Source: Cyanobacteria bacterium MAG CAR3_bin_5 (GTDB lineage: Bacteria; Cyanobacteriota; Cyanobacteriia; PCC-6307; Cyanobiaceae). Taken from it: 64,000 nucleotides of DNA. The notes beneath the pieces were generated by a model. That model was not told where the DNA came from, searched no databases, and saw nothing but the letters and a program-made list of their open reading frames with translations. How positions within the stretch are numbered: position 1 is the first letter of the stretch; every line of letters begins with the position of its first letter. Where the stretch lies: positions 1 through 64,000 of the forward strand of contig JAPOTR010000054.1 of the NCBI GenBank assembly GCA_026709085.1, read 5' to 3'. The position numbers and the translations under genes are program-made. Below, one piece after another: positions 14,669 through 63,567 of the stretch.

Positions 14669-14740
14669 AGAAGTCAACGGTCACTCTCATGCCTGCCACC
14701 ATGGGAGCCTGGCCAGATTTTTCCTGTGGCCCCTATGGTC

Positions 14741-16294: not shown

Positions 16295-16298
16295 ATTT

Positions 16299-18193: not shown

Positions 18194-18303
18194 TGGAGTG
18201 GGGTGATTGGTGAGGGCTACCTTAGCTGAGTAGTATGGACCCTGTGCCCCATAGATCCTTAAGACGGGACGGCAAACGGACCTCCTTCTCTGTTGATCTT
18301 CTT

Positions 18304-19668: not shown

Positions 19669-19719
19669 TAATCAAATTGTCACTCTTAGCATACGGAAGT
19701 TAAAGGGGAAAGACCTTAA

Positions 19720-19905
19720 AAAGAGTCTTGGGGATGGACAGACTGTCGGAGCGCCCTGTCGCCACAGGATCCAGAAACATCACCAGATCCTTGTTCAGGG
19801 CCTTGGCCAGGGCGCGGGTCACCACGCCAATCCCTGTGGGCCGTTGCCCAAGGGGGCTGCCGTTGAACAGAGCCAGAGGCGGAGAGGACCGCAATGGAGT
19901 GGGGT
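19720..19905 (-). pseudogene. 5' fragment of the GT4 glycosyltransferase gene, second copy
   Basis: These 186 bases match 18019-18204 with only a few differences. They encode the first 58 or so residues of the glycosyltransferase, including GQRPTGIGVVTRALAKALNK and DPVATGRSDSLSIPKT. The match breaks exactly at the codons after PKT, where AT-rich sequence from the Cdc6-like ATPase block begins. It is a truncated gene end left at the edge of an insert or rearrangement. Confidence 0.9.
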
Positions 19906-19945
19906 GGTGGCTGGAGTTGGTTACCCTAAAGGCAAGCCCCACAAA

Positions 19946-20036
19946 GGCAGTTACAGCTTCGGCGCCAACGTGCTGTTCGTCGTGCCCGGTAATGACCGCA
20001 GCCGCCGAGGCGGCCGCCCCTGGACCCCAGGCGTTT
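19946..20036 (+). pseudogene. fragment of the MacB-type permease gene
   Basis: This short stretch encodes FGANVLFVVPGNDRSRRGG in one frame and is close to base-for-base identical with codons 55-85 of the permease gene at 41400-42629 (minus strand there, about 42385-42475). It begins about 40 bases after the glycosyltransferase fragment and ends about 50 bases before tRNA-Val. It is non-functional and shows that local DNA has been copied or rearranged. Confidence 0.85.
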
Positions 20037-46805: not shown

Positions 46806-49800
46806 GTCCGGATCCCGCCACTGAACGCCAGGTCCGGGCTTCCCGGCCAACACACTCCACCTGGCTGGCCGCCAATGCGGGCTCCGGCAAAACACGAGTG
46901 CTCACCAACCGGGTGGCGCGGCTGCTGCTCAGTGGCGCCCGCCCCGAACAGATTCTCTGCCTTGCCTACACCAAGGCGGCGGCGGCAGAGATGAAGAACC
47001 GACTGTTCCGCACGCTGGGGGGCTGGGCCATGCTGCCGGATGACGCCTTGCGCCGGGAACTGGAGGCCCTGGGGGAGACGGCGCTCACCCCCCGTCAACT
47101 GCGCCGGGCCCGCACCCTGTTTGCCTGTGCCATTGAAACCCCTGGCGGCCTCCAGATCCAGACCATCCACGCCTTCTGCGCCGGTCTGCTGCGCCGCTTC
47201 CCCCTGGAGGCCGGGGTTAGCCCCCAGTTCGTGGAAATGGACGATCACGCCGCGGCAAGACTGACCCGCCAGATCATCCAGGCCATGGCCGAGGGCCGAC
47301 ATGGACCCCTGCTGGATGGGTTTGCAGCCCAACTCAGTGGGGAAGACAGCCTGGGAAAGGTGATTTCCCAGGTGGTGAGCAACCGTGAGACGTTCCAGCA
47401 GCATCCCCTCCCATGGCCCCGATTGCTGGAGATCTTCTCCCTTCCCCCCACCATTACGGAACAAGCCCTGGTGGACCAGGTGTTTCTGCCGGGCGACCTG
47501 GAACTCCTGGTCCAACTCCGCACCCGGCTGCAAGGGAGCAGCGCGAGGGACCAGGGGGCGGCGCAGAAACTGGCGTCCCTGGCGGTGGCCAAACCGACCG
47601 TGGCGGACGTGGCGCTGCTGGAAGGCGTGCTGCTCACGGGGGCAACAGCCAGGACACCCCATGCCGCCAAAATCGGCGCATTCCCCACCAAGGCCCTCCG
47701 CAAAACCACGGCTTCCCTGATCCCCCCATTGGAAGAACTTATGGCGCGGGTTGAGCAGACGCGGCCCCGACGGCTGGCCCTGGCTGCCGCCCAGCGCTCC
47801 ATGGCGCTCCATGACTTCGCTGCGGCGTTTCTGCCCATCTATGCCCACGAAAAGCAACGACGGGGTTGGCTGGATTTCGACGACCTCATTCAACACTCCC
47901 GATTCCTTCTGCAGGACTCTTCCGTAGCGGATTGGGTGCTGTTCCGTCTGGATCGTGGCGTGGACCACGTTCTGGTGGACGAAGCGCAGGACACCAGCCC
48001 GGCCCAGTGGGACGTGATTGATCAACTCACCCGGGAATTCAGCAGTGGTGAAGGGGCTCGCAGTGGGCAACGCACCATCTTTGTGGTGGGAGATAAGAAG
48101 CAATCCATCTACTCTTTCCAGGGGGCCGACCCCAGGGCTTTCGACACCATGGCGGATGTATTCGGCAAGCGGCTGGAGGGGGCGAATCTGCACTTGCAGA
48201 AACTTCACCTGGAGTATTCCTTCCGTTCGGCTCCGGTGATCCTCCGGTTGGTGGATGCCGTGTTCGCGGGGCGGGAAGCCGCGGGGTTTTCTGCCCGGGA
48301 GCGCCATAAGGCTTTCAAGGAAGCCCTGCCGGGGCGGGTGGATCTATGGCCGTTGGCGCCCAGGACCACCGGGGCGGAGCAACCAACCTGGAGCGACGCC
48401 AGAGAATACACTCACCCCCGGCCTCCGGCCAAGGTGTTGGCTGAGCAGGTGGCCGCGTTCATCCATGGCCTCATTCACCGGGGGGAGACCATCCCCGTCA
48501 CCACCGGGGCTGACACCATCCGACGGCGCCCCGTTCGGCCCGAGGACATGCTGATTCTGGTGCAGCGCCGCTCTGAACTGTTTACAGAAATCATTGCCGC
48601 CTGCAAGGCCAAAGGGTTACCTATCGCCGGCAAGGATCGTCTCAAGGTGGCGGCTGAACTGGCAGTGAAAGATCTCATGGCGCTGCTCCGTTTCCTGGTC
48701 ACCCCGGCGGATGACCTGTCTCTGGCAGAAGCCTTGAAATCCCCCATCTTTGGCTGGAGTGAACAACAACTCTTTTCCCTGGCCCACCATCGCCCTCCGG
48801 GATGCTCCCTGGGGAAGGCGCTCCAGAACCAGGCTTCTCACCATCCCGACACCGTTGCCGTTCTGGAGGATCTGCGCAACAAAACCGACTATTTGCGCCC
48901 CTATGAGTTATTGGAACGCACGTTGACCCGTCACGGTGGACGTCAACGGCTCATGGGGCGGCTGGGGCCGGAGGCGGAAGAGGGCATTGATGCCCTGCTG
49001 GGCCAGGCCCTGACCTATGAAACCGCAGAAGTTCCCAGCCTCACGGGTTTTGTAGCCTGGGCCACCACGGATGCCTTCGAGGTGAAACGCCAACTCAGCG
49101 AAGCCAGTGACATGGTGCGGGTGATGACCGTGCATGGCGCCAAAGGCCTGGAGGCCCCCATTGTGATCCTGCCGGATACAATTGTTCAAAAGAAAGCCCC
49201 CGGTTCCGACCAGTTGGTCAGTACAGCCCGGGGCGCCTTGCTTTGGAATACAAAAGCTGGTGATCAACCTGATTGTCTTCGCCAAGCCGTGGCCCAGCAA
49301 CAGCAGAAAGATCAAGAGGAACACCTGCGGCTGCTTTATGTGGCCATGACCCGTGCCCAGACCTGGCTCATTGTGGCTGGCTCGGGTGAGATGAAAGGAG
49401 AGGCGGACAATTGGTATCAGCAAATCCATCAAGGAATCGGGCGAGTTGCTGATGCGGTGAGTGCCGGCGCGGTTCAGGGAATCACTATAGAAAACCATAC
49501 ACAACAGGAGAAAGAACATGGTCCCGGTGGAGAGATTGTGCGGCTCGGTTGTGGGGATTGGTCCGCCCCGCAGCAACAACAGGATGATCAAGGCTCCAGA
49601 CGGCAACAAGCCAGGGCGCCCGGCCATCTGTGGCAACCTCCCAAGCATCAGGAGCCCCTGGCCATGCCGGAGCCCATCAACCCATCCAGGCTGGACGGGG
49701 ACAAGGCCTTACCCGGTGTAGCCGGGATCGATCAGGACCTGGCCATGGCCCGGGGCACAGCCATTCACCGCCTGTTGGAAACATTGCCCCGCATTGCGCC

Positions 49801-50284
49801 GGCGCTGTGGCGGGATGTGGCTGCCCAACTGCTGCATCAATGCCTGCCTGACGATCACCAATTCGGTGAATCGGAACGGGACGGCATGATGCAGGAGGCG
49901 GTGAATGTGTTGAGCGCACCCGCCCTTGACCAGGTGTTTGCCGAAGACGCTCTGGCGGAAGTGAGCTTCAGCGTCGTTGTGGACGGCCAGCCGGATGGCA
50001 GGCCCATGCAGGGGATCATGGATCGGGTGCTGGTGGGCCCCGACACGGTGCTGGTGGTTGACTTCAAAACCAACGCCACCGTACCCGCAACCCCACAGGA
50101 TTGCCCGGAGGGCATCCTCCGCCAAATGGGCGCCTATCGCCAGGCCCTCGCCATCCTTTACCCGGATCATTCCGCCGAAGCCGCCGTCCTCTGGACCCGA
50201 ACCGCCACCATAATGCCGCTTCCCAACAGGCTTCTCCAAGACGCTTGGCAGCGCGATCAAGCCACCCGTTCCCCCGCCCTATGA
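46802..50284 (+). CDS. addA: Double-strand break repair helicase AddA, alphaproteobacterial type
   Basis: A 1160-residue UvrD-like helicase with a C-terminal nuclease domain, partner of AddB. Motifs in order: Walker A in WLAANAGSGKTRVLTNRVAR, IQTIHAFCAGLLRRFP, Walker B LVDEAQDTSPAQWDVI, GDKKQSIYSFQGADPRAF, VMTVHGAKGLEAPIVILPD (motif V) and LRLLYVAMTRAQTWLIVAG (motif VI). The nuclease site is GIMDRVLVGPDTVLVVDFKT with a trailing QMGAYRQAL. It is complete. The start at 46802 overlaps the addB stop. It converges on the methylase gene, with a 6-base overlap of the two stops. Confidence 0.92.
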   Translation: MSPDPATERQVRASRPTHSTWLAANAGSGKTRVLTNRVARLLLSGARPEQILCLAYTKAAAAEMKNRLFRTLGGWAMLPDDALRRELEALGETALTPRQLRRARTLFACAIETPGGLQIQTIHAFCAGLLRRFPLEAGVSPQFVEMDDHAAARLTRQIIQAMAEGRHGPLLDGFAAQLSGEDSLGKVISQVVSNRETFQQHPLPWPRLLEIFSLPPTITEQALVDQVFLPGDLELLVQLRTRLQGSSARDQGAAQKLASLAVAKPTVADVALLEGVLLTGATARTPHAAKIGAFPTKALRKTTASLIPPLEELMARVEQTRPRRLALAAAQRSMALHDFAAAFLPIYAHEKQRRGWLDFDDLIQHSRFLLQDSSVADWVLFRLDRGVDHVLVDEAQDTSPAQWDVIDQLTREFSSGEGARSGQRTIFVVGDKKQSIYSFQGADPRAFDTMADVFGKRLEGANLHLQKLHLEYSFRSAPVILRLVDAVFAGREAAGFSARERHKAFKEALPGRVDLWPLAPRTTGAEQPTWSDAREYTHPRPPAKVLAEQVAAFIHGLIHRGETIPVTTGADTIRRRPVRPEDMLILVQRRSELFTEIIAACKAKGLPIAGKDRLKVAAELAVKDLMALLRFLVTPADDLSLAEALKSPIFGWSEQQLFSLAHHRPPGCSLGKALQNQASHHPDTVAVLEDLRNKTDYLRPYELLERTLTRHGGRQRLMGRLGPEAEEGIDALLGQALTYETAEVPSLTGFVAWATTDAFEVKRQLSEASDMVRVMTVHGAKGLEAPIVILPDTIVQKKAPGSDQLVSTARGALLWNTKAGDQPDCLRQAVAQQQQKDQEEHLRLLYVAMTRAQTWLIVAGSGEMKGEADNWYQQIHQGIGRVADAVSAGAVQGITIENHTQQEKEHGPGGEIVRLGCGDWSAPQQQQDDQGSRRQQARAPGHLWQPPKHQEPLAMPEPINPSRLDGDKALPGVAGIDQDLAMARGTAIHRLLETLPRIAPALWRDVAAQLLHQCLPDDHQFGESERDGMMQEAVNVLSAPALDQVFAEDALAEVSFSVVVDGQPDGRPMQGIMDRVLVGPDTVLVVDFKTNATVPATPQDCPEGILRQMGAYRQALAILYPDHSAEAAVLWTRTATIMPLPNRLLQDAWQRDQATRSPAL

Positions 50285-53200
50285 TTGTGTTGCAGCCAGG
50301 GGCCAGCCGCCATGGGCGGCAATGGTGGAGTCAATGGTGGCCATGAGACGGGATGTTGCAGCCAGGGCGCCACAGATATGGCGGTAGTGGTCAATGTCTG
50401 CAAAGGAAAGACAACGACCCTTACGCTCCTTCAGCCACTTCTGGGCAGGGCGGTAGCCACCGATGGCGCAGTTCCAGGTTTCAGGAGATATGCCGTGGAA
50501 GCATTGTTCGGAATTGATCCACACCTGGCCGGGATGATTGTTTTGTGGTGGCGTATAGGATACTGTCTGAATACGATAATCACCGTGGTGGGGAAACGTG
50601 GGTGCTTCTTCGTATGTTTCCGTTTCAAGGCAATGGCAAGCAACCAACTGCCGGCCCAAGTCAACAAGGTCGGCAAAAAGAGCTTTGCTGCTGATGATCG
50701 GTAAGCTGGGGAAGTCCGATTTCAAATGGTCCTGGTAGCGCTGGCGATAGGCTGGGCTATGGAGGAGAGCATAGATGCTGTGCAGCACATCCTCCGGGCC
50801 AAAGCTGGCCATCAGATCCCCTGATCCATCGGGGATAAACGTCAGATTGAGAGCAGCGGCGCTGGCGTTGATAAAGTCTGGATTGAGGTTATGTTTTCTG
50901 GTTGAGCTGACTTGAACATCTTCTTTGGCCAAGTATTGATAGAGAGGGAAAAGGAGATTACCGCCCCGCCGGAAAAGATTAAGATCTGTTGGGTTGCGTG
51001 AGACAAACGCAACATCCCACTGCTTTGAACCGGTTACCTGGCCAGCACGACCGATGCAGAGAGCAAGATTTGCACCTGAGAACATATGCCTCATCACATG
51101 CTCGCGCCTGTTGACAGCAACATTACGATTAAATATGGTTATTCTCTTGTCAAACGGCCGATAAAGTATAGATCGAATCTGGCGCCGCCATAGTCCACTG
51201 GCCAGTTCCTCTTTGGCGCGCTCGTACTGCCATTGACTTTGTGAACACAGGCGCCAGATCCGCCGTGCTTCCTTTTCCGATGTTGTATTCAGAAAACGCT
51301 CCATCTTGTCAATCATCTCTTCAGGTGTCCAGGAAATGGCAAGTTGATCATGGGTGGTGACGATCCCTGTGGCTGCAGATGTGGTCGTAGAGGAAAAGAT
51401 ATTCACGATGGACCAGTATTTTTCGTATTCCTTGTTGATGGTTTGATTGCGCGGCACAAACAGATAGAGGGGGGCTTGGGGTGCTAACGGTGTCCATGGC
51501 GTGGTCTCCACGTCGTTGGCTGCAAGCCAGCCATATTTGTTGCCATCCTGGTCACCACCGGGGCCGGCTTCCCGCTCACCCCATAGCTCCCCATGAAACA
51601 CCCCTTTGCTCAGATTCCGAGCGTGGGCGCTTTTGCCATGCTTGACAAAGAAACCGATGGCAACCCCCTGTTGAATATCAAAAACATTCACATCCTTGCC
51701 ACCGTCGGGGGCTTGTTCCCGTCTTCTGGTGTTGCCGTGAAGGTCCAGGAGATAGATCTGATCAAAGGTCTCCATCAGACTGCGGCGCATCCCACGGAAG
51801 GTGGGATTGTCAAGATAGCTGTGATTGGTCACAAATGCCAGAATCCCCTCGCCGGTTTTCTCAATGCGCCATTGGGCAAAACGGATGAATTTTACGTAGT
51901 CGTCATTGAGCCACTTGGTGTTTCTCTCCTGTAGATCCTGACCGTCCATATGGAAATAGCTCCCCTTTGAGAAGTGATCACCCTGGCCTCTGAGCAGTTG
52001 ATTGATCCAGGGGTTCTTGTTGGCGGAGTGGCCCGAATAGGGTGGATTGCCAATCACCACCATCACGGGTTTTTCCCGCTTGATTCCATCGGCGCTGGCA
52101 GCTTCACGGGCAATGGCATGGGCCAGAAGGACCCCTTGCACCTGTTGATGGCCGCCTTCCAGGGTATTGGTGAGAAATACGTTCAGCCGTTGGCCATCCC
52201 CAAGCTGCAAGCCCTGGTGCTGATCCCCCAGTTCCAGGGCCAGCTTCAAGTGGGCAACGGCATAGGGGGCCATCAGCAGCTCAAAGCCAAACAGGCGGGG
52301 GAGCAGGTGCTGCTTTACGTACTCCGGCCAGGCGCCCGCCAGCCCTTGCCGCTCCAGAGTAGTGCGAATCTGAACAATCACCTCCCGTAGAAATGTTCCC
52401 GTCCCTACAGCGGGATCCAGAATGAACACACGGTGCTTCTGGCCGAGGCTCGGCATTTCCGCCAAACCGGAAGGTAAGCCAAACTGATTCCTGAGCAGCT
52501 TGTCCACACTGCGCACAATGTAGGATACTACCGGCTCAGGCGTATAATAGACGCCGCGAATTTCTTTTAGTTTTGGATCATAGGCTTTTAGAAAATCCTC
52601 ATAGAAATGCACCACTGGATCTTCCCGCTGACTCCGTTGTCCGAAATCCTCCAGCACTGCCGCCATATCGGCCTGGTCCAATAGACGGGCCAGATCGTCC
52701 ACAATCCAGGTTATGGATGGATCCAGACCAGGTCCGGCAATGCGGCCGAATACGTCTTGAAGAAATGGGGTGGTTGTACTAAACACCGCCGATTGACGAG
52801 TGAACGATATTCCTGCCGGATGGCCACAGCGGGCGGCAAACAGGCCATAGATTGTGGTTTGCGCTTGCAAGTCGGCAAAGTCTGCTGCGGATAGATTTGT
52901 GATCAAGACTTGGCGGTAGACCTGCCACAAGTCATGCAACGGTTCCGAGCCGTTCTCCTGTGCCAGGACGCGGGCCATGGTGTCCCGCAGAAGACGGGCC
53001 TTGGCGGCCATGGCGCGGGCCAGAGCCTCGGAATCACCAATGGCCGCCGGCGCCGCGTTCAGAAAATCCTGGAGAAGAGCGTTGATCCTGTCCAACGCCA
53101 CCGGGTCAAACCGGATGCCGCCATGGCTGTCCGCATATCCCAGGTCCACTTGCCCCTGCTCTTTCCCCTCCAGGTACCAACGGCACTCCAGATGGTTGGT

Positions 53201-53440
53201 CAGGATCACGTTGGCTAGACCATGGCGATAGGGTTCCAACGACCCGGTGGCTGCTGCCTCATCCAAGGGGATGGTGGTGTCTGTGCAGGCTACATAACCA
53301 ACAGTCACCCCGTCCCGCTCAACAATCAGATTCGGCGCACCACAAGCAACCTGCTTGGCTTGGTTGAGGACTCGCAGGTCCTTGCCCCCCATACGCTCCA
53401 GCAACTGCTGCAGTGCTGTCACAGCACCCTGGTTCAACAT
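50279..53440 (-). CDS. Type ISP-like N6-adenine DNA methylase with degenerate N-terminal nuclease module
   Basis: A 1053-residue protein. The methyltransferase core has VYYTPEPVVSYIVRSVDKLL, the AdoMet motif ILDPAVGTGTFLREVI and the catalytic NPPY in VVIGNPPYSGHS, then DVNVFDIQQGVAIGFFVK as in type ISP enzymes. The N-terminal 90 residues resemble their PD-(D/E)xK module, but where I expect PD and E-x-K the sequence has APNLIV and GYVACTDT, so cleavage is probably lost. The C-terminal target-recognition region ends PAQKWLKERKGRCLSFADID. It is the third gene of the cassette, 12 bases after the helicase stop. It may protect host DNA while the helicase and first protein act on foreign DNA. Confidence 0.85.
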   Translation of the reverse strand: MLNQGAVTALQQLLERMGGKDLRVLNQAKQVACGAPNLIVERDGVTVGYVACTDTTIPLDEAAATGSLEPYRHGLANVILTNHLECRWYLEGKEQGQVDLGYADSHGGIRFDPVALDRINALLQDFLNAAPAAIGDSEALARAMAAKARLLRDTMARVLAQENGSEPLHDLWQVYRQVLITNLSAADFADLQAQTTIYGLFAARCGHPAGISFTRQSAVFSTTTPFLQDVFGRIAGPGLDPSITWIVDDLARLLDQADMAAVLEDFGQRSQREDPVVHFYEDFLKAYDPKLKEIRGVYYTPEPVVSYIVRSVDKLLRNQFGLPSGLAEMPSLGQKHRVFILDPAVGTGTFLREVIVQIRTTLERQGLAGAWPEYVKQHLLPRLFGFELLMAPYAVAHLKLALELGDQHQGLQLGDGQRLNVFLTNTLEGGHQQVQGVLLAHAIAREAASADGIKREKPVMVVIGNPPYSGHSANKNPWINQLLRGQGDHFSKGSYFHMDGQDLQERNTKWLNDDYVKFIRFAQWRIEKTGEGILAFVTNHSYLDNPTFRGMRRSLMETFDQIYLLDLHGNTRRREQAPDGGKDVNVFDIQQGVAIGFFVKHGKSAHARNLSKGVFHGELWGEREAGPGGDQDGNKYGWLAANDVETTPWTPLAPQAPLYLFVPRNQTINKEYEKYWSIVNIFSSTTTSAATGIVTTHDQLAISWTPEEMIDKMERFLNTTSEKEARRIWRLCSQSQWQYERAKEELASGLWRRQIRSILYRPFDKRITIFNRNVAVNRREHVMRHMFSGANLALCIGRAGQVTGSKQWDVAFVSRNPTDLNLFRRGGNLLFPLYQYLAKEDVQVSSTRKHNLNPDFINASAAALNLTFIPDGSGDLMASFGPEDVLHSIYALLHSPAYRQRYQDHLKSDFPSLPIISSKALFADLVDLGRQLVACHCLETETYEEAPTFPHHGDYRIQTVSYTPPQNNHPGQVWINSEQCFHGISPETWNCAIGGYRPAQKWLKERKGRCLSFADIDHYRHICGALAATSRLMATIDSTIAAHGGWPLAATQS

Positions 53441-53452
53441 GGACGCTCACCT

Positions 53453-56400
53453 TTAACATTCACGGGGGCAGCGTCGAGACCGCGGTTGGCGTCGCGGCTG
53501 CTGCTGCCCCATCCACTGCCGGGTGCGGCCAGGACGACGCGATAGGTTAAAAGTATCCCAGCAGAGTACATTCTTTTTTGTCTGATACTCTGGATCAAGA
53601 GAGGAAGCGAACTCAGTCAAAAGTCCTTCGTTCAGACCCCAGCGCCATAATGGATGTCTAATAATAACCCAAGGACGCCGCGATCCTAGTCGAAAAGCAT
53701 AGATTTTATCAGAGCTATTAGGAATAGGATACTCTTTTCTACTATCAGATTTGTCTTCATTCCAGAGCTTCAGAGTGTCTTCTCGAAGTCTCAAGGCCGT
53801 CTCCGGCCACTGTTGCAGGGGCGACCAACTAAAATCACCATCAAGACCACATTGCCAGGAAGAATCCGTAAAAGATCGCAAGTAGGCAAGGCCCAGCCGC
53901 CAGTCCAGGAGACCATGGAGATTTTGATTATCGTAAGATTTCAGACAACGATAACAGGCTTCCTGACACTTGCTTTGATGGTTTTCTGTGGCCCATTCCT
54001 CAGCTTGATTGTTGAGAATATAACTCAACACCTTTAAGATGGGAGGCAAATCACCATGGCCAAGCCAATCGCTAAATCCAGCTCCATTAACATGCTCATC
54101 GACAATTTGAAGCATTGGAAGCTTTCCCTTTTCTTGGTGTCGGAATAGACGGGGTTCAACTGCCTGAAGGGAACGAAGCTCGATATCTAAATAGCGAGTA
54201 GCTGCGGAAATAAGAATCTCAGAAGCTGAAATTGCTGCAGCGCGGATTCCCTGCCAGTAATGTTTTCCTGACAAAGGCTTTGAGTTCGATTTAGATGAGT
54301 TTCTCTGTTCAAGATATGGAACATCTTCATCATCTCCGAGATAAGAAATAGCTAGATTCGAATTCATTTTTTGTGGCAAAAGATATAATCCGTCTGTGAC
54401 TCGTGGTGCAGCTAGATAAATTGATTTTTCAATAATCTCTTGAGATTTTGGAGAAGAAGTCTCATCATTAAGGATTTTTAATTTCTGAACGTCTGATAAG
54501 ATACGCTTATCAATGGCCTGAGCCTTAAGAGGTGATTCATTGGAGGAACTGCGGCCTTTGCTCATTACGCCATTCTGCCAAGATAGAGAAAATCCTTGTT
54601 TGCCAGTACCTTGATTGAGGCGATACACAATGGTAGAATCACTGGTGGTAAGAGATATCTTGGCTGTACGAACAGTTTTCTCTGGGTCATCATAACATTT
54701 TTCCTTCCAACTATCAGACTCAGGTGGCTTGCTATCTGCGCAGAGAGAGTTGCTAGAGCTACCTGGTAGGCGTTCGACTGATTTTGTCTGTGGCTTGAAG
54801 TCAGTACGGAACGCAGCAGGCTCCAGGCACCATTTAGGATGCCAATCGCGTAAAGGACTCTTATTTTGGCAACTGGGACACTCAATCACGCTCTCGTCTG
54901 CTTTGTCACCAATATCTTTCCAGGCCCAGCATTTCGGACATTGACCAAGCCTAAACAGGCGATCCCAAGGATTATCTGATAGGGTCTGCGGTTCAGGCTT
55001 ACCTCGATTACCAGAGAAACTAAAACCAATTCTAGGAGTTAAGCCAATACAGCGATGATCTTTTTTATCATGAATCAATACATTACCAGGAGCATACTCA
55101 TAGATCGCAACTTCTAGATCACGGCTAAGACTTTCTGTTGGCTCAGTACTATTTTTACTTTTGCCAAGCACAAGCTCGCGTACTCGAGTTGGTAAACCAT
55201 ACATGGGAAGAAGTCCATAGTTGGCTAAGTGAGCAGCTAGTCCAACAGTGTTTCCTCCAATTACTTCTTTATGTTCAACAATTTCCTGCCAAAGACTCTC
55301 ACTAGATCTAGATGATAGAGAATTATCAAAATTACTAGAATTTCCTCGTTTTATAGCATCAAGCGTGTGTTTAATCTTTATCTGAACATCAGAGAACTGA
55401 AGAGCTTCATGAAGCCACTGCTTCCACTTCTCTAATAGTTCTGTGTTTTTCAGTATAGCTGCTGGAATGAAGTCACCGTGAACGTCCACAGGCTTAACCA
55501 AGTCTCCCAACCAAAAACCTCCTGTCTCATCACGGTGGCTTTGTTCAAGCTGTCGAAAAGCTGCAACCAATTGATCTTTGCAGACTAAACGTTCAGCGAT
55601 ACGCGGCAGGCGTTTTACCAGAAAGGGTAGTGGTGGAGCATCTCCAGTGATGGCTTCAGGATGACGAAAATAGTGCAGGTCATGGCTACGAGAACGGCAA
55701 AGAGTGAGCACAAAGCAAAAGGCCTGACCACGGCGACCAGCACGCCCTACCCGCTGCTGGTAATTAAACCGTTGAGGAGGCATATTGGCTTGCACAATGG
55801 CTTCAAGGGGGCTAATATCAATTCCCACTTCCATGGTTGTGGTCACAGATAGCATCTCAATATCTTGGGGTTTGAGCGGATGACAATTCTGATCAGGCAG
55901 TTGGATACCTTTGAAATTCCGCTGCCTAGAAGCAGGATCAATGGTCTGTCCCGTCAACTCCTCACAGCGAAGCCGGAAGATGCCATTTTCTTGAGAACGG
56001 CTGCGGCCTAAACGACGAGCCAAGAAGTTATCGCGCTGTAAATCCTCACAACACCCTGTCTGGTTAGAAGGCAGCCGTGTGCCACAGCGTGTACAGACAT
56101 CTAAGCCTCGGTGCAAGTGAATTCTTCGACAATTATTGCAGCGCCAGTACGGATCACTATTCTTAGTAGTTCTAAAAGCTATTTTGTTAAGATCAATATA
56201 ATCAAAGTTTTCAGTATAGTAACCATAGCGACGCATTGTTTTTTGCATATCTGTGAAAAGATCTTTATGATCTTTATTCAGATTCTGTGCAAAGATTTGA
56301 ATTAGCTTAGCTAGATAAGAACGTCCTCTTGTTATTTCTGCTAATGTAATTTTCTTAGTTTTCTCATATCGAGAAGGAGTAAAACGGTAATTATCTGTAT

Positions 56401-59400
56401 AAATTCGCATCCATGATGCTGCTTTATCTAGTTCTATTAACTCTTCATTTAATTCTCTTTTATTAAAATCTTTAGGTAATTGTGGAAGTGGAATAGGATA
56501 AGCAAGACCAGTGGCCTCAAGAGCAAAATAGGTTTTGTTAAATACGATATCACCAATTCTTTCACAAACTTTATTTAAAAATTGTTTGCAAAGATCTTGA
56601 TACTCATCTTGATCTGTTGCTTGAGAATCTTCTAGAGACCATTGAAAATGATCATGATTCTCACTAAAAAATTCCCACCAATCAAAACTTCTAGAATCTG
56701 ATCTAGGTTGAGATAATTTTAATCTGTCAACTCCACGCTCACAAAATGGATGAATACCAAGTTTAATAAGCTCAGTAAGAAAGGATTTAACTTCTTTTTC
56801 TATAGACTCTAATTTTGGAGGCTCTAATTCAAGAATTGATCCTAAAGGAATGATTCGTAACGATTGCTGAAGATTCTTGGCTTCTAAATTTGTCTTTTTA
56901 CTTTTAAGAAAATCAACGTACTCTTCATCATTTTTATGGCGCATAATTTTATTTTCGTAATCTTCTATCTCATTTTGTAATCGTTCATTAGTTGGTTGAT
57001 TGCGTATAACTTTCAGAAGAGTCTCTCGCAACACATCACGGTGATGCAGTTGCTCAACACCCAAGGCTGTGCGAGCTGCTGCTTGGCGGCTATCTGAGAA
57101 GCTAACCAGGCGAGCCTTTCTACTATCTCCATCTTTAGCTAGCACACCATATAATTCACTGGCCAAGAGTTGGGTAACTCTTCCTAAACCTGAACGCTGA
57201 GACTGAAGAGGAGAAAACTGACTTAGTGGAGGCTGGTAGTTACCCCTTTTTACTCGCTTAGGTCCATAGTCAATTTCACAACGTGGACAGCGGCAAGGCA
57301 TATGGCTACCAGGACTTTTGTTAGTTACTCCTCTGTGCTTATTGCTTAGATCTCTTGTAAAAAGATATCCTGGCTGACGTAGTTTTTCGGAATCTTCTTC
57401 CTTAAATACTATTCCATTCCTAGGATCTATCCAGGATGGCTCCCATTTTTCCTGCTGATTTTCACTATCATTAGGAAGAATTTGCTTATTATCATCTTTT
57501 GGCCAAAATATCACATAACTATCATAGATATACTCCTCAAATCCATTGGAGATTGATAAATCAGGTAATGATTCTATATCTTCTTCATTTGGAAGTAATT
57601 CTGCAATAACATTATCTGTTGGATATTGTTTTTCGTCTGCGCGAACACCGCCAATAAAACATTCACCACAGCATTCGCAGCTCAGCAATTCAAACTGTCG
57701 TACTGAATGAATACTGCCATCACGATCCAGAGCATGGCGCGTTGTGCCAGTGCGCTCGACTGAGAGTTCCCCTTGCCAGCGTTGTGGCTTTTTCTCGGAG
57801 CGCCAAGCTGGGGGCACCACATCCACAAAGAGTCCTTGGGGAACTCTAAAGAAAGTGTGGAGGCGGAAACGGGGCACAGGCCAGAGTTTCTCCTGGCGCA
57901 ACTTGCGCAGTTTCTTACCTGTGTTACCACTATGGTCAGCAGCACTAACTACGGCAGTGAGGAGACGCATGTTGCGCTCAACTTTTAAAGGTGGCCAACC
58001 ATGATTTAGCCAACAACGCTCAAAAATCTCGTCAAGCGATGTTGCAACAACTGAATCATCATTGCGACAACAAGCTTTTTCAAAAGCACAGCCAACAGCA
58101 CTGGCCAACCACTCCCAACGCTCCTCCAAGCGATCCCAATTTGGAACGTGAAGTGCATCAAGAAATGCTGTAAGATCTTCTCGATAATTCTCAAAACCTG
58201 GCTCTGGCAGAATGTTATCCTCATTCTCATCTATTTTCCATGGCGTATCCTTCAAGACATCAATTGTCTTATCAAGATCAGTTGCATCAAATGAAAGATC
58301 AGGATGCTCTTCATCTTTAGCATACTTATCCTTGCCTGTAACAATAGCCTCAATCCAGTCTTCTCGGACAGATCCTCTGCCTAAGCCAAAATCGGCAAAG
58401 GCATCGTACAAGTAGTTCAGACTTACTTCCTTTCCACTGGCATCATTTTCATCAACAGGTAAAGAGGCGCTGGATGCCAACAAACGCAGTTGATGGTGAC
58501 GCTCAGGCTGGTCAAGACCCAAACGCACGAAGAGAAGGCGCAATAGATACATGAATTCGGTGCCTGCACTGCCCCGTTGCAGGTGAAGTTCATCGATTAC
58601 GAGTGTGAAGCGGTTGCGTGGATCATTCTCAAGCCATTCCCGTGTTTTCTCCAACATGCAGGCCTCCGTTTTCCGACTCAACATGGCGTTTAGCATACTG
58701 ATGTTGGTCACCAAAATATCGGGTGGAGACTCTTGCATGTCCCAGCGCGTAACCATCTCTGCACCATCCAACGCTGGAAAAGCAAAAGCTTTATCCTGAA
58801 TTTCTTTATCCTGAATTTCCTGAGAATGGCCAAGACCGACCTGTTGATCTGAAGAGATATTGGCTTCTCTGCGGATGGCCGACTCCAGATCGTCAAGTCT
58901 GGATAGCTCAATGATTACATTCTCAATACGGTTTTTTCTTGAATTGGCAACAGAATTTTTCCATTTGGAAAGTGTGCGGTTATCATCACAACCTTTAATC
59001 CTGTCTCTGAGCCTTTCTGCTCCCTCACCGTGACGGAGATTGCGTAGGGCTTTCTCATGTTCAAGTAAGTATGCAGGACCGCCTTTTGTTTTACCAGTGT
59101 AGCGACCAAAGAAGATGCGATTACCATTGAGATGTCGGTCAAGGGTATCCCGTGCATTTTGAGAATCCAACGCCATACGTAAGCGCGTCATCTGGTCTTC
59201 CACCAAAGCATTCATGGGATAGAGAATTAGAGCACGAATGGCTGCAGGGCGCTGTTCACCTTGTCTCTGTTCATGGTCTTTGTAATCATTCCACTGAAGG
59301 CCATTCTGAATACCTTCTTTAAGTTTATACTCCCCTTTGGGATTTCCCTTCGCCATAGGCTGACCATCCTTGCCACGCCACCAACGATTCTCTGAGCTAA

Positions 59401-59896
59401 GGTAGCCAGACTCTGGCCTGGGCCACCCTCCCTGATCACGAGTGGCCTCCTCAACGATTGATGCCAGAATCGGCAGTAGGAAGGCCTCGGTTTTCCCTGA
59501 CCCCGTGCCAGAGGTGACGATGCCAGCGTGACCATCACGCACCCCTCGTTTCAGCATTGTTACCTGATGGCTGTAGGGACGATAGAGGTCTCCACGCTCA
59601 TCACGGTCCATGAGGCCACAGCCGATCAGATCCACAAAGGCGCGTCGTGCTTTTAGCGACAGGCCTGCCAGAACCGCATCTTCCCCTTCCTCGGTCACGA
59701 GATCCTCGAAGCTGCGCCCATCTGTCTCCCAGGAAGGCAGTGGCTCAAGCAGTGGACTGGTACAGAGCGTACCAGTCTCCATGAGCAAACTTCGGCGCTC
59801 GTCCCTGATCTCTGCTGGCTCAAGCCTGGAGGCTGTGTCCAGGTAGCTGAGATAGAAGGCGCGGATGCGGGAGAAGGCGCCAATGGGATCATGCAT
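53453..59896 (-). CDS. Very large DEAD/DEAH-box helicase with zinc clusters and DUF1998-like C-terminus
   Basis: A 2147-residue SF2 helicase. Walker A is GIVTSGTGSGKTEAFLLP (about 125-142), motif II is LVIDELHLQRG (about 432-442), motif III LLASSASLP (about 472-480). The second motor half, with MEVGIDISPLEAIVQANMPP and NYQQRVGRAGRRGQ, appears only near residue 1350, so some 850 residues lie between. Cysteine pairs that could bind zinc occur near 738 (CECCGEC), 868 (CRCPRC), 1255 (CNNC with CTRC) and 1655 (CPKC with CPSC). A DUF1998-like CQEACYRCLKSYDNQNLHGL is near 1978. The ends are GC-rich, the middle strongly AT-rich. The start overlaps the upstream gene by 8 bases. Confidence 0.85.
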   Translation of the reverse strand: MHDPIGAFSRIRAFYLSYLDTASRLEPAEIRDERRSLLMETGTLCTSPLLEPLPSWETDGRSFEDLVTEEGEDAVLAGLSLKARRAFVDLIGCGLMDRDERGDLYRPYSHQVTMLKRGVRDGHAGIVTSGTGSGKTEAFLLPILASIVEEATRDQGGWPRPESGYLSSENRWWRGKDGQPMAKGNPKGEYKLKEGIQNGLQWNDYKDHEQRQGEQRPAAIRALILYPMNALVEDQMTRLRMALDSQNARDTLDRHLNGNRIFFGRYTGKTKGGPAYLLEHEKALRNLRHGEGAERLRDRIKGCDDNRTLSKWKNSVANSRKNRIENVIIELSRLDDLESAIRREANISSDQQVGLGHSQEIQDKEIQDKAFAFPALDGAEMVTRWDMQESPPDILVTNISMLNAMLSRKTEACMLEKTREWLENDPRNRFTLVIDELHLQRGSAGTEFMYLLRLLFVRLGLDQPERHHQLRLLASSASLPVDENDASGKEVSLNYLYDAFADFGLGRGSVREDWIEAIVTGKDKYAKDEEHPDLSFDATDLDKTIDVLKDTPWKIDENEDNILPEPGFENYREDLTAFLDALHVPNWDRLEERWEWLASAVGCAFEKACCRNDDSVVATSLDEIFERCWLNHGWPPLKVERNMRLLTAVVSAADHSGNTGKKLRKLRQEKLWPVPRFRLHTFFRVPQGLFVDVVPPAWRSEKKPQRWQGELSVERTGTTRHALDRDGSIHSVRQFELLSCECCGECFIGGVRADEKQYPTDNVIAELLPNEEDIESLPDLSISNGFEEYIYDSYVIFWPKDDNKQILPNDSENQQEKWEPSWIDPRNGIVFKEEDSEKLRQPGYLFTRDLSNKHRGVTNKSPGSHMPCRCPRCEIDYGPKRVKRGNYQPPLSQFSPLQSQRSGLGRVTQLLASELYGVLAKDGDSRKARLVSFSDSRQAAARTALGVEQLHHRDVLRETLLKVIRNQPTNERLQNEIEDYENKIMRHKNDEEYVDFLKSKKTNLEAKNLQQSLRIIPLGSILELEPPKLESIEKEVKSFLTELIKLGIHPFCERGVDRLKLSQPRSDSRSFDWWEFFSENHDHFQWSLEDSQATDQDEYQDLCKQFLNKVCERIGDIVFNKTYFALEATGLAYPIPLPQLPKDFNKRELNEELIELDKAASWMRIYTDNYRFTPSRYEKTKKITLAEITRGRSYLAKLIQIFAQNLNKDHKDLFTDMQKTMRRYGYYTENFDYIDLNKIAFRTTKNSDPYWRCNNCRRIHLHRGLDVCTRCGTRLPSNQTGCCEDLQRDNFLARRLGRSRSQENGIFRLRCEELTGQTIDPASRQRNFKGIQLPDQNCHPLKPQDIEMLSVTTTMEVGIDISPLEAIVQANMPPQRFNYQQRVGRAGRRGQAFCFVLTLCRSRSHDLHYFRHPEAITGDAPPLPFLVKRLPRIAERLVCKDQLVAAFRQLEQSHRDETGGFWLGDLVKPVDVHGDFIPAAILKNTELLEKWKQWLHEALQFSDVQIKIKHTLDAIKRGNSSNFDNSLSSRSSESLWQEIVEHKEVIGGNTVGLAAHLANYGLLPMYGLPTRVRELVLGKSKNSTEPTESLSRDLEVAIYEYAPGNVLIHDKKDHRCIGLTPRIGFSFSGNRGKPEPQTLSDNPWDRLFRLGQCPKCWAWKDIGDKADESVIECPSCQNKSPLRDWHPKWCLEPAAFRTDFKPQTKSVERLPGSSSNSLCADSKPPESDSWKEKCYDDPEKTVRTAKISLTTSDSTIVYRLNQGTGKQGFSLSWQNGVMSKGRSSSNESPLKAQAIDKRILSDVQKLKILNDETSSPKSQEIIEKSIYLAAPRVTDGLYLLPQKMNSNLAISYLGDDEDVPYLEQRNSSKSNSKPLSGKHYWQGIRAAAISASEILISAATRYLDIELRSLQAVEPRLFRHQEKGKLPMLQIVDEHVNGAGFSDWLGHGDLPPILKVLSYILNNQAEEWATENHQSKCQEACYRCLKSYDNQNLHGLLDWRLGLAYLRSFTDSSWQCGLDGDFSWSPLQQWPETALRLREDTLKLWNEDKSDSRKEYPIPNSSDKIYAFRLGSRRPWVIIRHPLWRWGLNEGLLTEFASSLDPEYQTKKNVLCWDTFNLSRRPGRTRQWMGQQQPRRQPRSRRCPREC
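58789..58818. repeat. 15-base perfect tandem duplication in the helicase gene
   Basis: CTTTATCCTGAATTT occurs twice in direct succession. On the coding strand it doubles the five residues EIQDK in frame near residue 360 of the helicase. Confidence 0.9.
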
Positions 59897-62714
59897 GGGG
59901 ACGGGGACTAGAATTGATCAAGGGGATTTCAGCCTCGTCTCGGATCATAGCACCTGTGTCTTGATCAAACCAATAGGAGTAGGTGTGCTGCTCCCGCCTG
60001 CTTGGTAGGGTAGGGCCTGGCAGTTGCCGCCCCTTCAGGGCTGCAAAGCGGCCAATCGGCAGGGGCAAGTAGGCGTCAGCATCGTAGAAACGCTCGATCA
60101 GTGGCCTCTGCCGATCAGGGAAGCCAAAGGGCCAGAGCCCGTTAGTGGCGCCATGGATGCAATGCAACGCAGCACGGTTCCGATGACAGGACACGAACGG
60201 GCCATATCCATCATCGGGACTGTGCCATCGAGTTTGTCCGAACCCGCGTTCCCGGCGAATTACCGCTTGGCTGGGACTGGCCCTATCGTCATCCTGAAAG
60301 CGCTGCCCCGGTGGCTGAGAGTAGTCCAGGTGGCTTTCCCTGCGGGCTCCACAAAGCTGCTCCTCATGGAAGTAGGTATCCCTGGCAGAGCGGGGCCAAT
60401 CCCGGCCATCACATGTTCTGGGTTCCACCATCCAAGGCGGGGCGCCGTCCAAATCTTCAACCCAGTCCTCCTGAGCTACCAAGGGCAGACCACTAAACTC
60501 AGCTAGCAAATATATCTCACCACAAAAACGCCAGCCGCGGGGTAACCAAGCGCAGGCTGGGTCTACAGGTTTGACGGCCATCTCAAGTTCCATAGCAAGG
60601 GCCAGCAACTTCTGCAAACCAGCAACGGATAGCAGGCCAACCACTTGCGCCCCCATCGGACTTGTTCGGACTAGACGGGGATCAATGGGCTGCAGATTCC
60701 ACTGCCCACTCTTCTCCAGTCCCTCCTCCAGCCATCCACCTTCACACCAGGCTCGCAGCAAGCCTTCATAAAACAGTGGCCACGGAGAGGACATCCCACC
60801 CAGTTGGCGATAGAGCTGCTGAAATTCCCGGCGCTTGATGCCCGGGCGACGCTGGAATACCGCACAGAGTGCGTCAAGTATCTGCTGTTCAAACTGTGGG
60901 TTAACCATTGAGTTACCATTGCTCAACAACTGCTTGGCTTTGTCTGTAGAAGTATGACCCAGGTCAAAATCTCCAGGCTTGGACATTTCCAAGTTGATGG
61001 GTCCCAGCTTGCAGCCCCAGTCTTCCCGATAAGCAATGGGCTGAGAGCGTTTAAGCTGTACGTAAGAAGAAATGTTCTTCAACTGAAACGTGCTCTCCTG
61101 ATCGGAGACGTCCGTAAAAGAAGCCACGATCCTTGCTGCTCCTGGCTGAAAAGCGGTTTTCTTCCGGCTGTCCTCTGATGGGTTCCATATCTCTGGATTG
61201 CCCTGGTCTGGGATGTAGGATATTGGAGACTCCTCTTGGGGGACAGAAAGGTTGATGGCCTGTGCTGGTTGTCTAAATTGCACGCGCACACTTGGCAAGC
61301 CCAGCCCCCTCGCCAAGAAACCACCTTGAACCCGGAGACCTCTCCTGAGGGTGAGCCTTGGAGGTGGATCTGTGTCATCTGGAGCCGCGCCAGATGTAGC
61401 AAATGTTTTGAGTTTCCTGGCAGTCGCATCAAAATCCCTGATGCAGATCCACCCTTCTTTCTCAAGATCGAAACTATCAATCTCTATCCCGCCGAATTTA
61501 TTTAGGAAAGCCTCACAGTTCTCTTCAAAGAGCACTACATGGCTGGGCCTTTGCTCCGCTGAAAGGCTCAGTAGCAGTCGCGGACAACGGAGGTCAGGAT
61601 CTAGTTCAAATGGCAGCAACCCCCGGTTGATTAGGGGATGGAGCCTGGTGATCGGGGACTTCTCACGGTCAATGGCAAGGCTACCCCCTTCAAAAGCAGC
61701 ATACTGAGGATCCAAATCGTTGGGAATCAGCAAGGGTTGTTCATTCAGTTTCTCACACCACCCCTTACCCGGCTCCTCATGCCAGCCATTCCGCTCAAGC
61801 TGGGGAATTCCATCTGCGAGAAGTAACACCCCCAGCAGATCACCGTATGAGCAAAGGATCAATGGCCCAAAACACAGAGCTTGATCCAGCGATTTACCGT
61901 TTACCGCTTGGAGATCCCGAATGACCCGATCAATGACCCGATCTAGGAATAAGCTGAACCCAGTTTCAGCATCAGGTTTCTTATTCAGTGCTTGTTGCCA
62001 CTTGTTGAGCTCTTTTTTGAAGTCCTTACTGAACTCCCTTTCAGCAAGAAGATCCCTAATCAACTGGGGGTCACTGGCCTTCAGAGACTTTCTATGGCGT
62101 TGTTGCAGATTACGAAGGTGTTTCTGCAGCAAACGACAGTCTGCTAAGCGCGGAAAGGACAACCACCAGGAATGGGAAATTTTGCTTCGATAAGCGTCGA
62201 TTGGAGGTAGCTTTAGCTGCCGGTGCCGTTCACCTTCAAAGATTCCTTCTATGGTCAGCCACTCGCTAAGTTTTCCCCAGGCTTCAGTCAAACGCCTGAG
62301 CCCCTGGTGATCCTGATGATCAAAAACTGCTTCATAGCGAGCATGAAACTTTCCCTCCTGATCAGGATCCGGGTAGCCGTGGGCAATGAGACAGGTAAGC
62401 CAAAGGAAGGCGAAGAACGGAGGTTCTTCCGGCGCTGATGGTGTGTAGTGCTTCATCTGATGATTCAGTGCAAAGTCGGCTGGTGTACGATTTCGCAACT
62501 GTGCCGGCCGCTCAAGTGCCTGTATCAGTTTCTCTGCCATGGTTCGCGGGTTGCTTTGACGGTCCCCTGTTAGTTCAAGAAGATCTTCCTCTGAGGCGCG
62601 CAAACCTTGATCCGGGGAAGCATCTGCATCAGCCACAAAACAGAACCGCAAGAGTTGCCAATTCCATGCTTGGACATCCCACTGATGCCAGGCTTGTTGT
62701 GGTGTGTAAGCCAT
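59889..62714 (-). CDS. Unrecognised 941-residue protein, first gene of the helicase-methylase cassette
   Basis: I do not recognise this protein. From the ATG at 62714 it begins MAYTPQQAWHQWDVQAWNWQ. I see no P-loop, no PD-(D/E)xK triad, no phospholipase D H-x-K motif, no membrane helix and no zinc cluster. The N-terminal half is rich in charged helices (LQKHLRNLQQRHRKSLKASD) and contains a 12-base in-frame duplication giving DRVIDRVI. The middle has a beta-rich PRLTLRRGLRVQGGFLARGL. The C-terminal third has IKRREFQQLYRQLGG, which may be a winged helix, and ends in a tryptophan-tyrosine-rich YSYWFDQDTGAMIRDE. Overlap with the helicase start implies coupled translation and a shared function. 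Confidence 0.75.
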   Translation of the reverse strand: MAYTPQQAWHQWDVQAWNWQLLRFCFVADADASPDQGLRASEEDLLELTGDRQSNPRTMAEKLIQALERPAQLRNRTPADFALNHQMKHYTPSAPEEPPFFAFLWLTCLIAHGYPDPDQEGKFHARYEAVFDHQDHQGLRRLTEAWGKLSEWLTIEGIFEGERHRQLKLPPIDAYRSKISHSWWLSFPRLADCRLLQKHLRNLQQRHRKSLKASDPQLIRDLLAEREFSKDFKKELNKWQQALNKKPDAETGFSLFLDRVIDRVIRDLQAVNGKSLDQALCFGPLILCSYGDLLGVLLLADGIPQLERNGWHEEPGKGWCEKLNEQPLLIPNDLDPQYAAFEGGSLAIDREKSPITRLHPLINRGLLPFELDPDLRCPRLLLSLSAEQRPSHVVLFEENCEAFLNKFGGIEIDSFDLEKEGWICIRDFDATARKLKTFATSGAAPDDTDPPPRLTLRRGLRVQGGFLARGLGLPSVRVQFRQPAQAINLSVPQEESPISYIPDQGNPEIWNPSEDSRKKTAFQPGAARIVASFTDVSDQESTFQLKNISSYVQLKRSQPIAYREDWGCKLGPINLEMSKPGDFDLGHTSTDKAKQLLSNGNSMVNPQFEQQILDALCAVFQRRPGIKRREFQQLYRQLGGMSSPWPLFYEGLLRAWCEGGWLEEGLEKSGQWNLQPIDPRLVRTSPMGAQVVGLLSVAGLQKLLALAMELEMAVKPVDPACAWLPRGWRFCGEIYLLAEFSGLPLVAQEDWVEDLDGAPPWMVEPRTCDGRDWPRSARDTYFHEEQLCGARRESHLDYSQPPGQRFQDDDRASPSQAVIRRERGFGQTRWHSPDDGYGPFVSCHRNRAALHCIHGATNGLWPFGFPDRQRPLIERFYDADAYLPLPIGRFAALKGRQLPGPTLPSRREQHTYSYWFDQDTGAMIRDEAEIPLINSSPRPHA
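61921..61944. repeat. 12-base near-perfect tandem duplication in the 941-residue protein gene
   Basis: ATGACCCGATCA is followed by ATGACCCGATCT. It encodes the doubled DRVI in frame. Confidence 0.75.
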
Positions 62715-62892
62715 AACGCTGCAGAAGGGGGATAAGGTCAGCTTAAGTCCAAGCTCTAGCCCTGGCGTCCCGCAGGATACGGGCCTTGATTGAGGACGTG
62801 CCACTCCAGCGCCATGGTCCAGCATGGGAAGAGTCTCTCACTGCCCTATGGTGCCACCCGTCCCATCTCAATCCGCGCCAGAGGCACCGGCC

Positions 62893-63567
62893 ATGGCGCT
62901 GCCACGGCGTCTGGTGGTGGCGGGCACGGATACGGGGGTGGGCAAAACCTTGATCTCGGCCCTGCTGGTGCGGGGCCTGGGAGCCCGCTACTGGAAACCC
63001 ATCCAGGCCGGTCTGCCGCCCCTGAGCGCCGAGCCCGGCGATAGCCGGCAGGTGCGGACCCTCAGCGGTTGCCCCGGCAGCGCCATCCTGCCGGAAGCCT
63101 ACAGTCTCCAACACCCCGCATCACCCCACTGGGCGGCCGAGCAGGAGGGAATCGTTCTGGAACGCCAGCGCCTCTGGCCACCGGATGAGGAGGAGCACGA
63201 GGCGTTGGTGGTGGAATTGGCAGGGGGGTTGATGGTGCCCGTCACCCCCCACCTGTTGCAGATTGACGTGATGGGGGAATGGGCGCTGCCGGTGGTGCTG
63301 GTGGCCCGGGCCGGCCTGGGCGCCATCAACCACACCCTGCTGAGTCTGGAGGCCCTGCGGCGGCGGCGCATCCCGGTGTTGGGGCTGGTGCTCAACGGGG
63401 AAGGCTTTGCCGATAACACCACCGTGCTGCCCAGGTTGGGTCGCACCCGCCTGCTGGGCCATGTGCCCCGCCTCCCCAAGCTGGATCCGATGGTGTTGGA
63501 CCGGGTGTGGCGCAGCAGCGGCATGGCAAGCTGGTGGCCGGCAACGGCATCCCCTCCCCATGGCTGA
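62893..63567 (+). CDS. bioD: Dethiobiotin synthetase
   Basis: BioD closes the ureido ring of dethiobiotin from 7,8-diaminononanoate, CO2 and ATP. The P-loop is [19 protein letters not shown] at the very N-terminus, followed by [11 protein letters not shown] (substrate lysine) and [12 protein letters not shown], the E-x-A-G-G motif. The ATG at 62893 ([15 protein letters not shown]) gives 224 residues, a usual size; upstream ATGs at 62824 and 62848 would add unlikely residues. The intergenic 178 bases to the divergent 941-residue protein gene hold both promoters. fumC starts inside its last codons. Confidence 0.92.

What the first reader, a model, noticed from the sequence alone, without database searches (positions are those of the whole stretch)
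50279..62714. Three-gene cassette of unknown protein, giant helicase and ISP-like methylase: candidate undescribed defence system
Seen: three minus-strand genes with an 8-base overlap and a 12-base gap, so almost certainly one transcript of about 12.4 kb. Known: DISARM pairs an N6-methylase with a helicase and a DUF1998 protein, and type ISP enzymes fuse methylase, nuclease and helicase. Inference: here the helicase and DUF1998-like parts are in one 2147-residue chain, the methylase is separate, and the first gene (941 residues) belongs to no family I know. DrmC (phospholipase D) and DrmD (SNF2) are missing. This could be a DISARM relative or a separate class.
Basis: partly seen in the sequence, partly recalled or inferred. 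Interest (0 to 1): 0.78.

Follow-up and report, generated by a model that had tools for sequence, protein, structure and literature searches.

The report
Druantia defence beside a disarmed restriction enzyme
The three genes are a compact version of the known anti-phage system Druantia (DruF and DruE) followed by a restriction enzyme whose DNA-cutting part has been destroyed while its DNA-marking part is kept intact, which suggests, but does not prove, that a restriction enzyme has become the marking arm of another defence system.

Summary
In detail: three minus-strand genes at 50279-62714, with an 8-base overlap and a 12-base gap. The "undescribed system" reading is mostly wrong. The giant helicase is DruE (PADLOC DruE2, 1700 bits, full length). 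The 941-residue "unknown" is a divergent DruF; DruF homologues lie upstream of DruE in 73 of 80 DruE loci. The pair is a compact Druantia core without DruG, with the DruL part apparently fused to DruF. It is not DISARM.

The third gene is the new part. It is a type IIG/ISP-like enzyme (nuclease, adenine methylase, recognition domain), found beside DruE in 0 of 80 loci. Same-genus relatives carry it alone next to bioD, with intact nuclease residues (E, D, E, K). In the window all four are gone (one by deletion, D to N, E to A, K to T), while the methylase domain is under strong purifying selection (dN/dS about 0.08-0.10). The spacer between bioD and druF, here and in a relative, holds debris of the same methylase gene, so druFE landed in an occupied restriction slot.

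Best reading: Druantia whose modification partner is a disarmed restriction enzyme. Functional coupling is inferred; coincidental juxtaposition remains a serious rival. New variant of a known kind.

The parts
59889..62714 (-). druF homologue, 941 aa, first gene of the operon; probably carries the DruL-equivalent region in its C-terminal third
   Evidence: PADLOC DruF2 N-terminal match E 4.6e-15; iterative HMM links it to the gene upstream of DruE in 73 of 80 loci; 76% identical orthologue upstream of DruE in G393; omega 0.31 against G393
53453..59896 (-). druE, 2147 aa YprA-type SF2 helicase of Druantia type II kind
   Evidence: PADLOC DruE2 1700 bits over residues 1-2130; solved relative 9wae, 1448 bits with profile A1
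59486..59512 (-). DruE Walker A region SGTGSGKTE (residues 129-137)
   Evidence: residues 130-137 invariant in alignment A1
58583..58594 (-). DruE motif II DELH (435-438)
55724..55756 (-). DruE motif VI QRVGRAGRRGQ (1381-1391)
53441..53452 (-). 12-base druE-methylase gap with AGGTGAG ribosome-binding-like motif
   Evidence: read directly
50279..53440 (-). type IIG/ISP-like restriction-modification gene, 1053 aa, nuclease dead, methylase intact
   Evidence: PADLOC PDLC03610 811 bits, Pfam Type_ISP_C E 2e-70, N6_Mtase E 1.6e-8
53081..53440 (-). remains of the N-terminal PD-(D/E)XK nuclease domain (residues 1-120); signature -NATS where relatives have EDEKQ
51461..52645 (-). adenine methylase domain (residues 266-660), motifs DPAVGTGTF (342) and GNPPYS (464) intact; dN/dS about 0.08-0.10
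50342..51373 (-). Type_ISP_C target-recognition domain (residues 690-1033)
62715..62826 (-). spacer between druF and bioD holding debris of an older copy of the methylase gene (start-codon region, and 62760-62789 matching codons 34-43 of G389's gene at about 28 of 30 bases)
46763..50284 (+). addA-like helicase-nuclease gene, boundary of the slot (shared with G387)
62824..63567 (+). bioD, other boundary of the slot, conserved in six same-genus relatives

Best explanation
The cassette is a compact Druantia anti-phage system (druF, apparently with the druL part fused, then druE) that was inserted into a restriction-modification slot between addA and bioD. It is now read together with a type IIG/ISP-like enzyme that has lost its nuclease but keeps its adenine methylase and recognition domain. 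Most likely mechanism: DruF recognises or licenses the target and recruits DruE; DruE, an ATP-driven SF2 helicase, loads on invading replication or recombination DNA and destroys or blocks it; the disarmed enzyme methylates its recognition sequence in host DNA and so acts as the self mark, or as the site-recognition arm, in the role expected of DruM in Druantia II and shown for PglX in BREX. Shown here: family identities, loss of all four nuclease residues in an otherwise constrained gene, slot history and gene order. Inferred: anti-phage function, the DruE/DruF division of labour, and any functional coupling of the methylase to DruEF.
For: DruE2 1700 bits and DruF2 hits; DruF upstream of DruE in 73 of 80 loci across many phyla; DruF and DruE under purifying selection against G393 (omega 0.31 and 0.16). 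Nuclease signature: 30 homologues read EDEKQ, the window reads -NATS, with flanking residues still alignable. Methylase omega 0.08 and 0.10 while nuclease identity falls to 60% (78% between the two intact relatives). A same-slot, same-genus active form exists without Dru genes in G392 and G390. 12-base spacing with an SD-like motif. Modification enzymes recur beside DruE: a C5 methylase-like frame within 10 kb in 49 of 80 loci, and in two nearer relatives outside the genus DruE and DruF bracket a full type I RM system. Precedents: PglX is MmeI-like without a nuclease domain (PMC11341690); in ARMADA the methylase motif is needed for defence (PMC12458937).
Against: The methylase sits beside DruE in this one genome only (0 of 80 other loci). 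Nuclease-less copies without Dru genes occur in the same slot in G388 and G389, and a decayed copy in G391, so nuclease loss needs no Druantia. A DruM2-like C5 methylase with its own restriction enzyme is encoded elsewhere in the genome and could mark DNA in trans. G393's contig ends inside druE, so whether the methylase follows there is unknown. No nuclease is evident in any of the three proteins, so the DNA-destroying step is unassigned.
Confidence: 0.6

Rival explanations
1. Coincidental neighbours: a complete two-gene Druantia system landed in a restriction hotspot next to an old restriction enzyme that was already losing its nuclease. The methylase is an orphan kept for its own reasons (gene regulation, protection against other RM systems) and has nothing to do with DruEF.
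For: The slot holds methylase genes in every state in the genus: intact (G390, G392), nuclease-less (G388, G389), debris (G387, G391). The association is seen once. Many DruE loci show no methylase within 10 kb (31 of 80 without a C5 methylase-like frame).
Against: 12-base spacing with an SD-like motif; the methylase domain is strongly constrained; modification genes recur beside DruE elsewhere.
Confidence: 0.33
2. DruEF uses cytosine methylation made in trans by the DruM2-like enzyme on another contig, as canonical Druantia II may do, and the adjacent adenine methylase is irrelevant.
For: G000:C55 carries a C5 methylase scoring 535 bits to DruM2, better than to any type II methylase model.
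Against: It forms a pair with a type II restriction enzyme (394 bits), and the same pair occurs in G387, in which no DruE was found; G393, which has DruFE, shows no such methylase, though it is only 73% complete.
Confidence: 0.1
3. A DISARM or ARMADA relative (adenine methylase plus YprA-type helicase).
For: Same broad composition: YprA-family helicase and adenine methylase; ARMADA also pairs them (PMC12458937).
Against: DrmA scores 27 bits against 1700 for DruE2; DrmB is not a separate gene; no SWI2/SNF2 (BrxHII/DrmD) helicase among the three genes; DruF homologues accompany DruE.
Confidence: 0.03
4. The methylase gene is a decaying pseudogene on the way out.
For: Its nuclease is dead, and decayed copies occupy the same slot in G387 and G391.
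Against: Full-length frame; methylase omega 0.08-0.10 and recognition domain omega 0.17 against two relatives; motifs intact.
Confidence: 0.07

Closest known systems
Druantia type II (DruM, DruF, DruG, DruE)
   Same: DruE2 over its whole length (1700 bits) and DruF upstream of DruE, with a modification methylase nearby
   Different: No DruG in the operon; the adjacent methylase is an adenine enzyme of type IIG/ISP kind instead of the cytosine methylase DruM, and lies downstream of DruE; DruF matches the PADLOC profile only in its N-terminal part
Druantia type IV (DruE, DruF, DruL; PMC8565338)
   Same: DruE + DruF without DruG or DruM; DruF plus DruL aligns as one protein with fused DruF-type proteins
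   Different: No separate DruL gene; DruE scores higher to DruE2 (1700 and 1556 bits) than to DruE4 (1144 bits); direct comparison of the picocyanobacterial DruF C-terminus with DruL alone is not significant
Type IIG / type ISP restriction-modification enzymes (e.g. LlaBIII, LlaGI)
   Same: Methylase and Type_ISP_C recognition domain; residual PD-(D/E)XK-like domain at the N-terminus
   Different: Nuclease residues lost; no helicase domain in the chain; sits in a helicase operon
BREX PglX (MmeI-like methylase without nuclease; PMC11341690)
   Same: Single-chain m6A methylase with recognition domain and no working nuclease, encoded with other defence genes
   Different: No BREX or PglX model is among its matches; no other BREX genes among the three
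ARMADA / DISARM
   Same: YprA-family helicase with an adenine methylase
   Different: No BrxHII-like helicase, no DrmB/DrmC; DrmA 27 bits only

Membership tests
Druantia (any type) | DruE-family helicase | tested here: met
   PADLOC DruE2 1700 bits, residues 1-2130 of 2147 on 1-1924 of 1928
Druantia type II | DruF | tested here: met
   PADLOC DruF2 E 4.6e-15 over residues 51-280 of the 978-aa frame; family link over most of its length by iterated HMM
Druantia type II | DruG | tested here: not met
   No DruG between DruF and DruE, whose frames overlap; in the own genome only a 20-bit hit in a frame with a stop
Druantia type II | DruM cytosine methylase in the operon | tested here: not met
   Adjacent methylase is of the adenine type; a DruM2-like enzyme exists on another contig beside a type II restriction enzyme
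Druantia type IV | DruL as a separate gene | tested here: not met
   No DruL gene in the operon; no DruL hit in the genome, though that search rang in no control genome; the equivalent region seems fused to DruF
Druantia type IV | DruL-equivalent region present | tested here: inconclusive
   hhalign 99.8% with the broad DruF C-terminal set A3, not significant with the six closest sequences alone
DISARM | DrmA helicase with separate DrmB (DUF1998) and DrmC | tested here: not met
   DrmA 27 bits; no DrmB or DrmC match among the families shown for the three proteins
ARMADA | BrxHII/RapA-like helicase plus PglX-like methylase beside the YprA helicase | tested here: not met
   No SWI2/SNF2-type helicase among the three proteins, and the operon is bounded by addA and bioD; no ARMADA-specific profile was on hand
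Active type IIG/ISP restriction enzyme | PD-(D/E)XK catalytic residues | tested here: not met
   -NATS in place of EDEKQ, the state of 30 homologues
Active type IIG/ISP restriction enzyme | Adenine methylase motifs I and IV | tested here: met
   DPAVGTGTF at 342, GNPPYS at 464
Druantia (any type) | Anti-phage activity | not testable with these tools
   Needs plaque assays

The most novel reading that the evidence does not exclude
A Druantia system has swapped its cytosine methylase for an adenine methylase made by disarming a type IIG/ISP restriction enzyme, so that a restriction enzyme has been caught in the act of becoming the modification and recognition arm of a helicase-based defence system; the DruF-DruE core would then be a module that accepts different modification partners (DruM, HsdMS, ISP-type methylase).
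Probability: 0.33. Interest if true: 0.68.

Novelty: new variant of a known kind. Interest (0 to 1): 0.46.

Why it matters
How Druantia types I, II and IV tell self from foreign DNA is, to my knowledge, not settled. If the methylase is coupled, this locus offers a clean test: an adenine methylase with an identifiable motif in place of DruM, with same-genus strains that carry the active restriction enzyme alone in the same place. It would also give an intermediate for the idea that BREX- and ARMADA-type methylases arose from restriction enzymes by loss of the nuclease. The finding that PADLOC's DruL corresponds to the C-terminal part of DruF would simplify the Druantia classification.

Tried and rejected
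DISARM and ARMADA membership (papers PMC12458937 and PMC8565338). A conserved three-gene cassette: no ISP-type methylase near DruE in 80 named loci nor in the other cyanobacterial DruE loci read. A nuclease hidden in DruF: AlphaFold2 models (mean pLDDT 80.6 whole, 80.2 C-terminal third) gave no confident fold match; weak beta-sandwich matches at residues 449-548 (best Z 7.9) and weak winged-helix matches near residues 605-695 (best Z 6.2), so its role rests on context. An active C-terminal nuclease in DruE: the region is present, but PMC12458937 describes it as an inactivated Vsr domain in types I and II; not tested independently. DruF in the PDB: none by sequence. A DruM partner in trans: found, but paired with its own restriction enzyme. 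Host dS near the slot (0.23-0.44) is lower than methylase dS against G392 and G390 (0.65-0.69), so methylase alleles have probably been exchanged between strains rather than purely inherited; whether the methylase arrived with druFE or was resident therefore stays open.
Full report
Observation. The 941-residue start at 62714 is the right one: the extra 37 codons of the open frame run through debris of another gene, and the G393 orthologue starts at the same Met. The druE stop and the methylase start are separated by AGGTGAGCGTCC. druE has 44.9% G+C, druF 53.6% and the methylase 54.8%, against 62.8% in addA and 69.0% in bioD, so the island looks foreign.

Identity of the helicase. PADLOC's DruE2 model matches residues 1-2130 with 1700 bits; DrmA gets 27 bits. 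Helicase motifs are intact. A solved relative exists (9wae, 1970 aa, 1448 bits with profile A1), so the fold is known.

Identity of the first gene. PADLOC DruF2 matches only its N-terminal part (E 4.6e-15). Starting from six picocyanobacterial sequences, iterated HMM searches join it to the gene upstream of DruE almost everywhere. In 80 named loci from many phyla a DruF homologue lies upstream on the same strand in 73; of the seven others, several are cut by contig ends and one has the gene downstream. PADLOC's DruL matches the C-terminal part of fused DruF-type proteins (DruF4 242 bits at 2-591 and DruL4 165 bits at 617-932 of one protein from a Flavobacteriales MAG), and the DruF C-terminal family matches DruL by profile comparison (99.8%), although the six closest sequences alone do not. 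DruL thus looks like the split-off C-terminal part of DruF, and the window protein like the fused form. Its AlphaFold2 model is helical at the N-terminus with an Ig-like sandwich and a winged-helix-like segment, all weak matches.

The third gene. It combines an N-terminal PD-(D/E)XK-type domain, an adenine methylase and a Type_ISP_C recognition domain. In 30 homologues the nuclease signature is E, D, E, K and a following Q (TEHSYR ... GAPD ... VECKD ... TEQLERY). In the window the first is removed by a deletion of about 26 residues and the others read N, A, T and S, while the flanking residues still align. The methylase motifs are intact. Against the two closest homologues (82% and 81%), omega in the methylase domain is 0.08 and 0.10 and in the recognition domain about 0.17; the nuclease region is 60% identical, against 78% between those two. 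This is loss of cutting with retention of marking, not general decay.

Slot history. In six same-genus genomes bioD is followed by the methylase gene, its debris, or druF. G392 and G390 have the methylase with an intact nuclease and no Dru genes between it and bioD. G388 and G389 have a copy without the nuclease domain. G391 has debris next to bioD, and G387 has debris next to addA. G393 has bioD, druF (76%) and druE (86% over 253 residues) to the end of the contig. The bioD-druF spacer of G393 still carries about the first 26 codons of the methylase gene (score 65 against a shuffle maximum of 34), and the window's spacer carries a match of about 28 of 30 bases to codons 34-43 of G389's gene (45 against 27). 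So druFE entered a slot already occupied by this restriction-modification family. dS of druF and druE against G393 (0.47, 0.45) is like that of host genes (bioD 0.40, bioA 0.43), consistent with presence since their common ancestor; methylase alleles are more diverged than host genes and have probably been exchanged.

Is the third gene a partner? For: 12-base spacing, selective loss of the nuclease, a constrained methylase, and the recurrent company DruE keeps with modification enzymes. A C5 methylase-like frame lies within 10 kb in 49 of 80 loci; in two nearer relatives outside the genus, G330 and G189, DruE and DruF bracket a whole type I RM system. Against: it is the only such case found, nuclease-less copies exist without Druantia, and a DruM2-like methylase exists in trans with its own restriction enzyme. 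I put functional coupling at about one half.

Mechanism. Work on Druantia III describes DruE as a helicase-nuclease effector engaging ssDNA-containing replication intermediates, with the partner protein as the likely sensor (PMC13192584). Types I and II have a predicted inactivated C-terminal Vsr domain (PMC12458937), so the destructive step here may be strand displacement or a host nuclease such as the neighbouring AddAB; this last point is inference. The methylase would mark host DNA at its motif, in the role PglX has in BREX (PMC11341690).

Classification. By PADLOC's published gene lists this is neither type II (no DruG, no operonic DruM) nor type IV (no separate DruL gene) (PMC8565338). 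It is best called a DruF-DruE Druantia of II/IV kind with an adenine methylase neighbour. Novelty lies in the partner and the disarmed nuclease, not in the system class.

Noticed in passing
L183:3195-4271, L141:7176-10004 (public genomes): PADLOC's DruL ('no domain annotations') is homologous to the C-terminal part of fused DruF proteins; Druantia IV may simply be a split-DruF form.
   Followed up: partly
L085, L088 (G330, G189): DruE and DruF, on opposite strands, bracket a complete type I RM system; next to DruE there is also a large helicase matching PADLOC PDC-S37/Hhe.
   Followed up: partly
L221/L119:11540-12802: A Cas4/RecB-like PD-(D/E)XK nuclease gene overlaps the end of druE in an uncultured cyanobacterium (G595), another possible partner swap.
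   Followed up: no
L246:5187-7302 (G000:C55): A cytosine methylase closest to DruM2 (535 bits) is paired with a type II restriction enzyme; DruM probably shares ancestry with this RM family.
   Followed up: partly
L228:3918-8149 (own contig, beyond the window end, past the bioA-like frame): Two adjacent minus-strand genes resembling a type III RM pair (ResIII helicase 889 aa, N6_N4 methylase 521 aa) about 1 kb beyond the bioA-like frame; the region around bioD looks like a defence hotspot.
   Followed up: partly
G386, G388, G389 (L189, L187, L188, L194, L195): Several same-genus genomes carry ISP-type methylases with no nuclease domain at all; nuclease loss is frequent in this genus.
   Followed up: partly
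window 12000-20000: A low-G+C stretch (about 44-49%) with an ATPase-like gene (15107-16294) followed by a short gene, possibly another mobile or defence island.
   Followed up: no
PDB 9wae and six further entries: Solved structures of a 1970-aa 'Helicase' closely related to this DruE exist; no paper describing them was found in the searched library.
   Followed up: no
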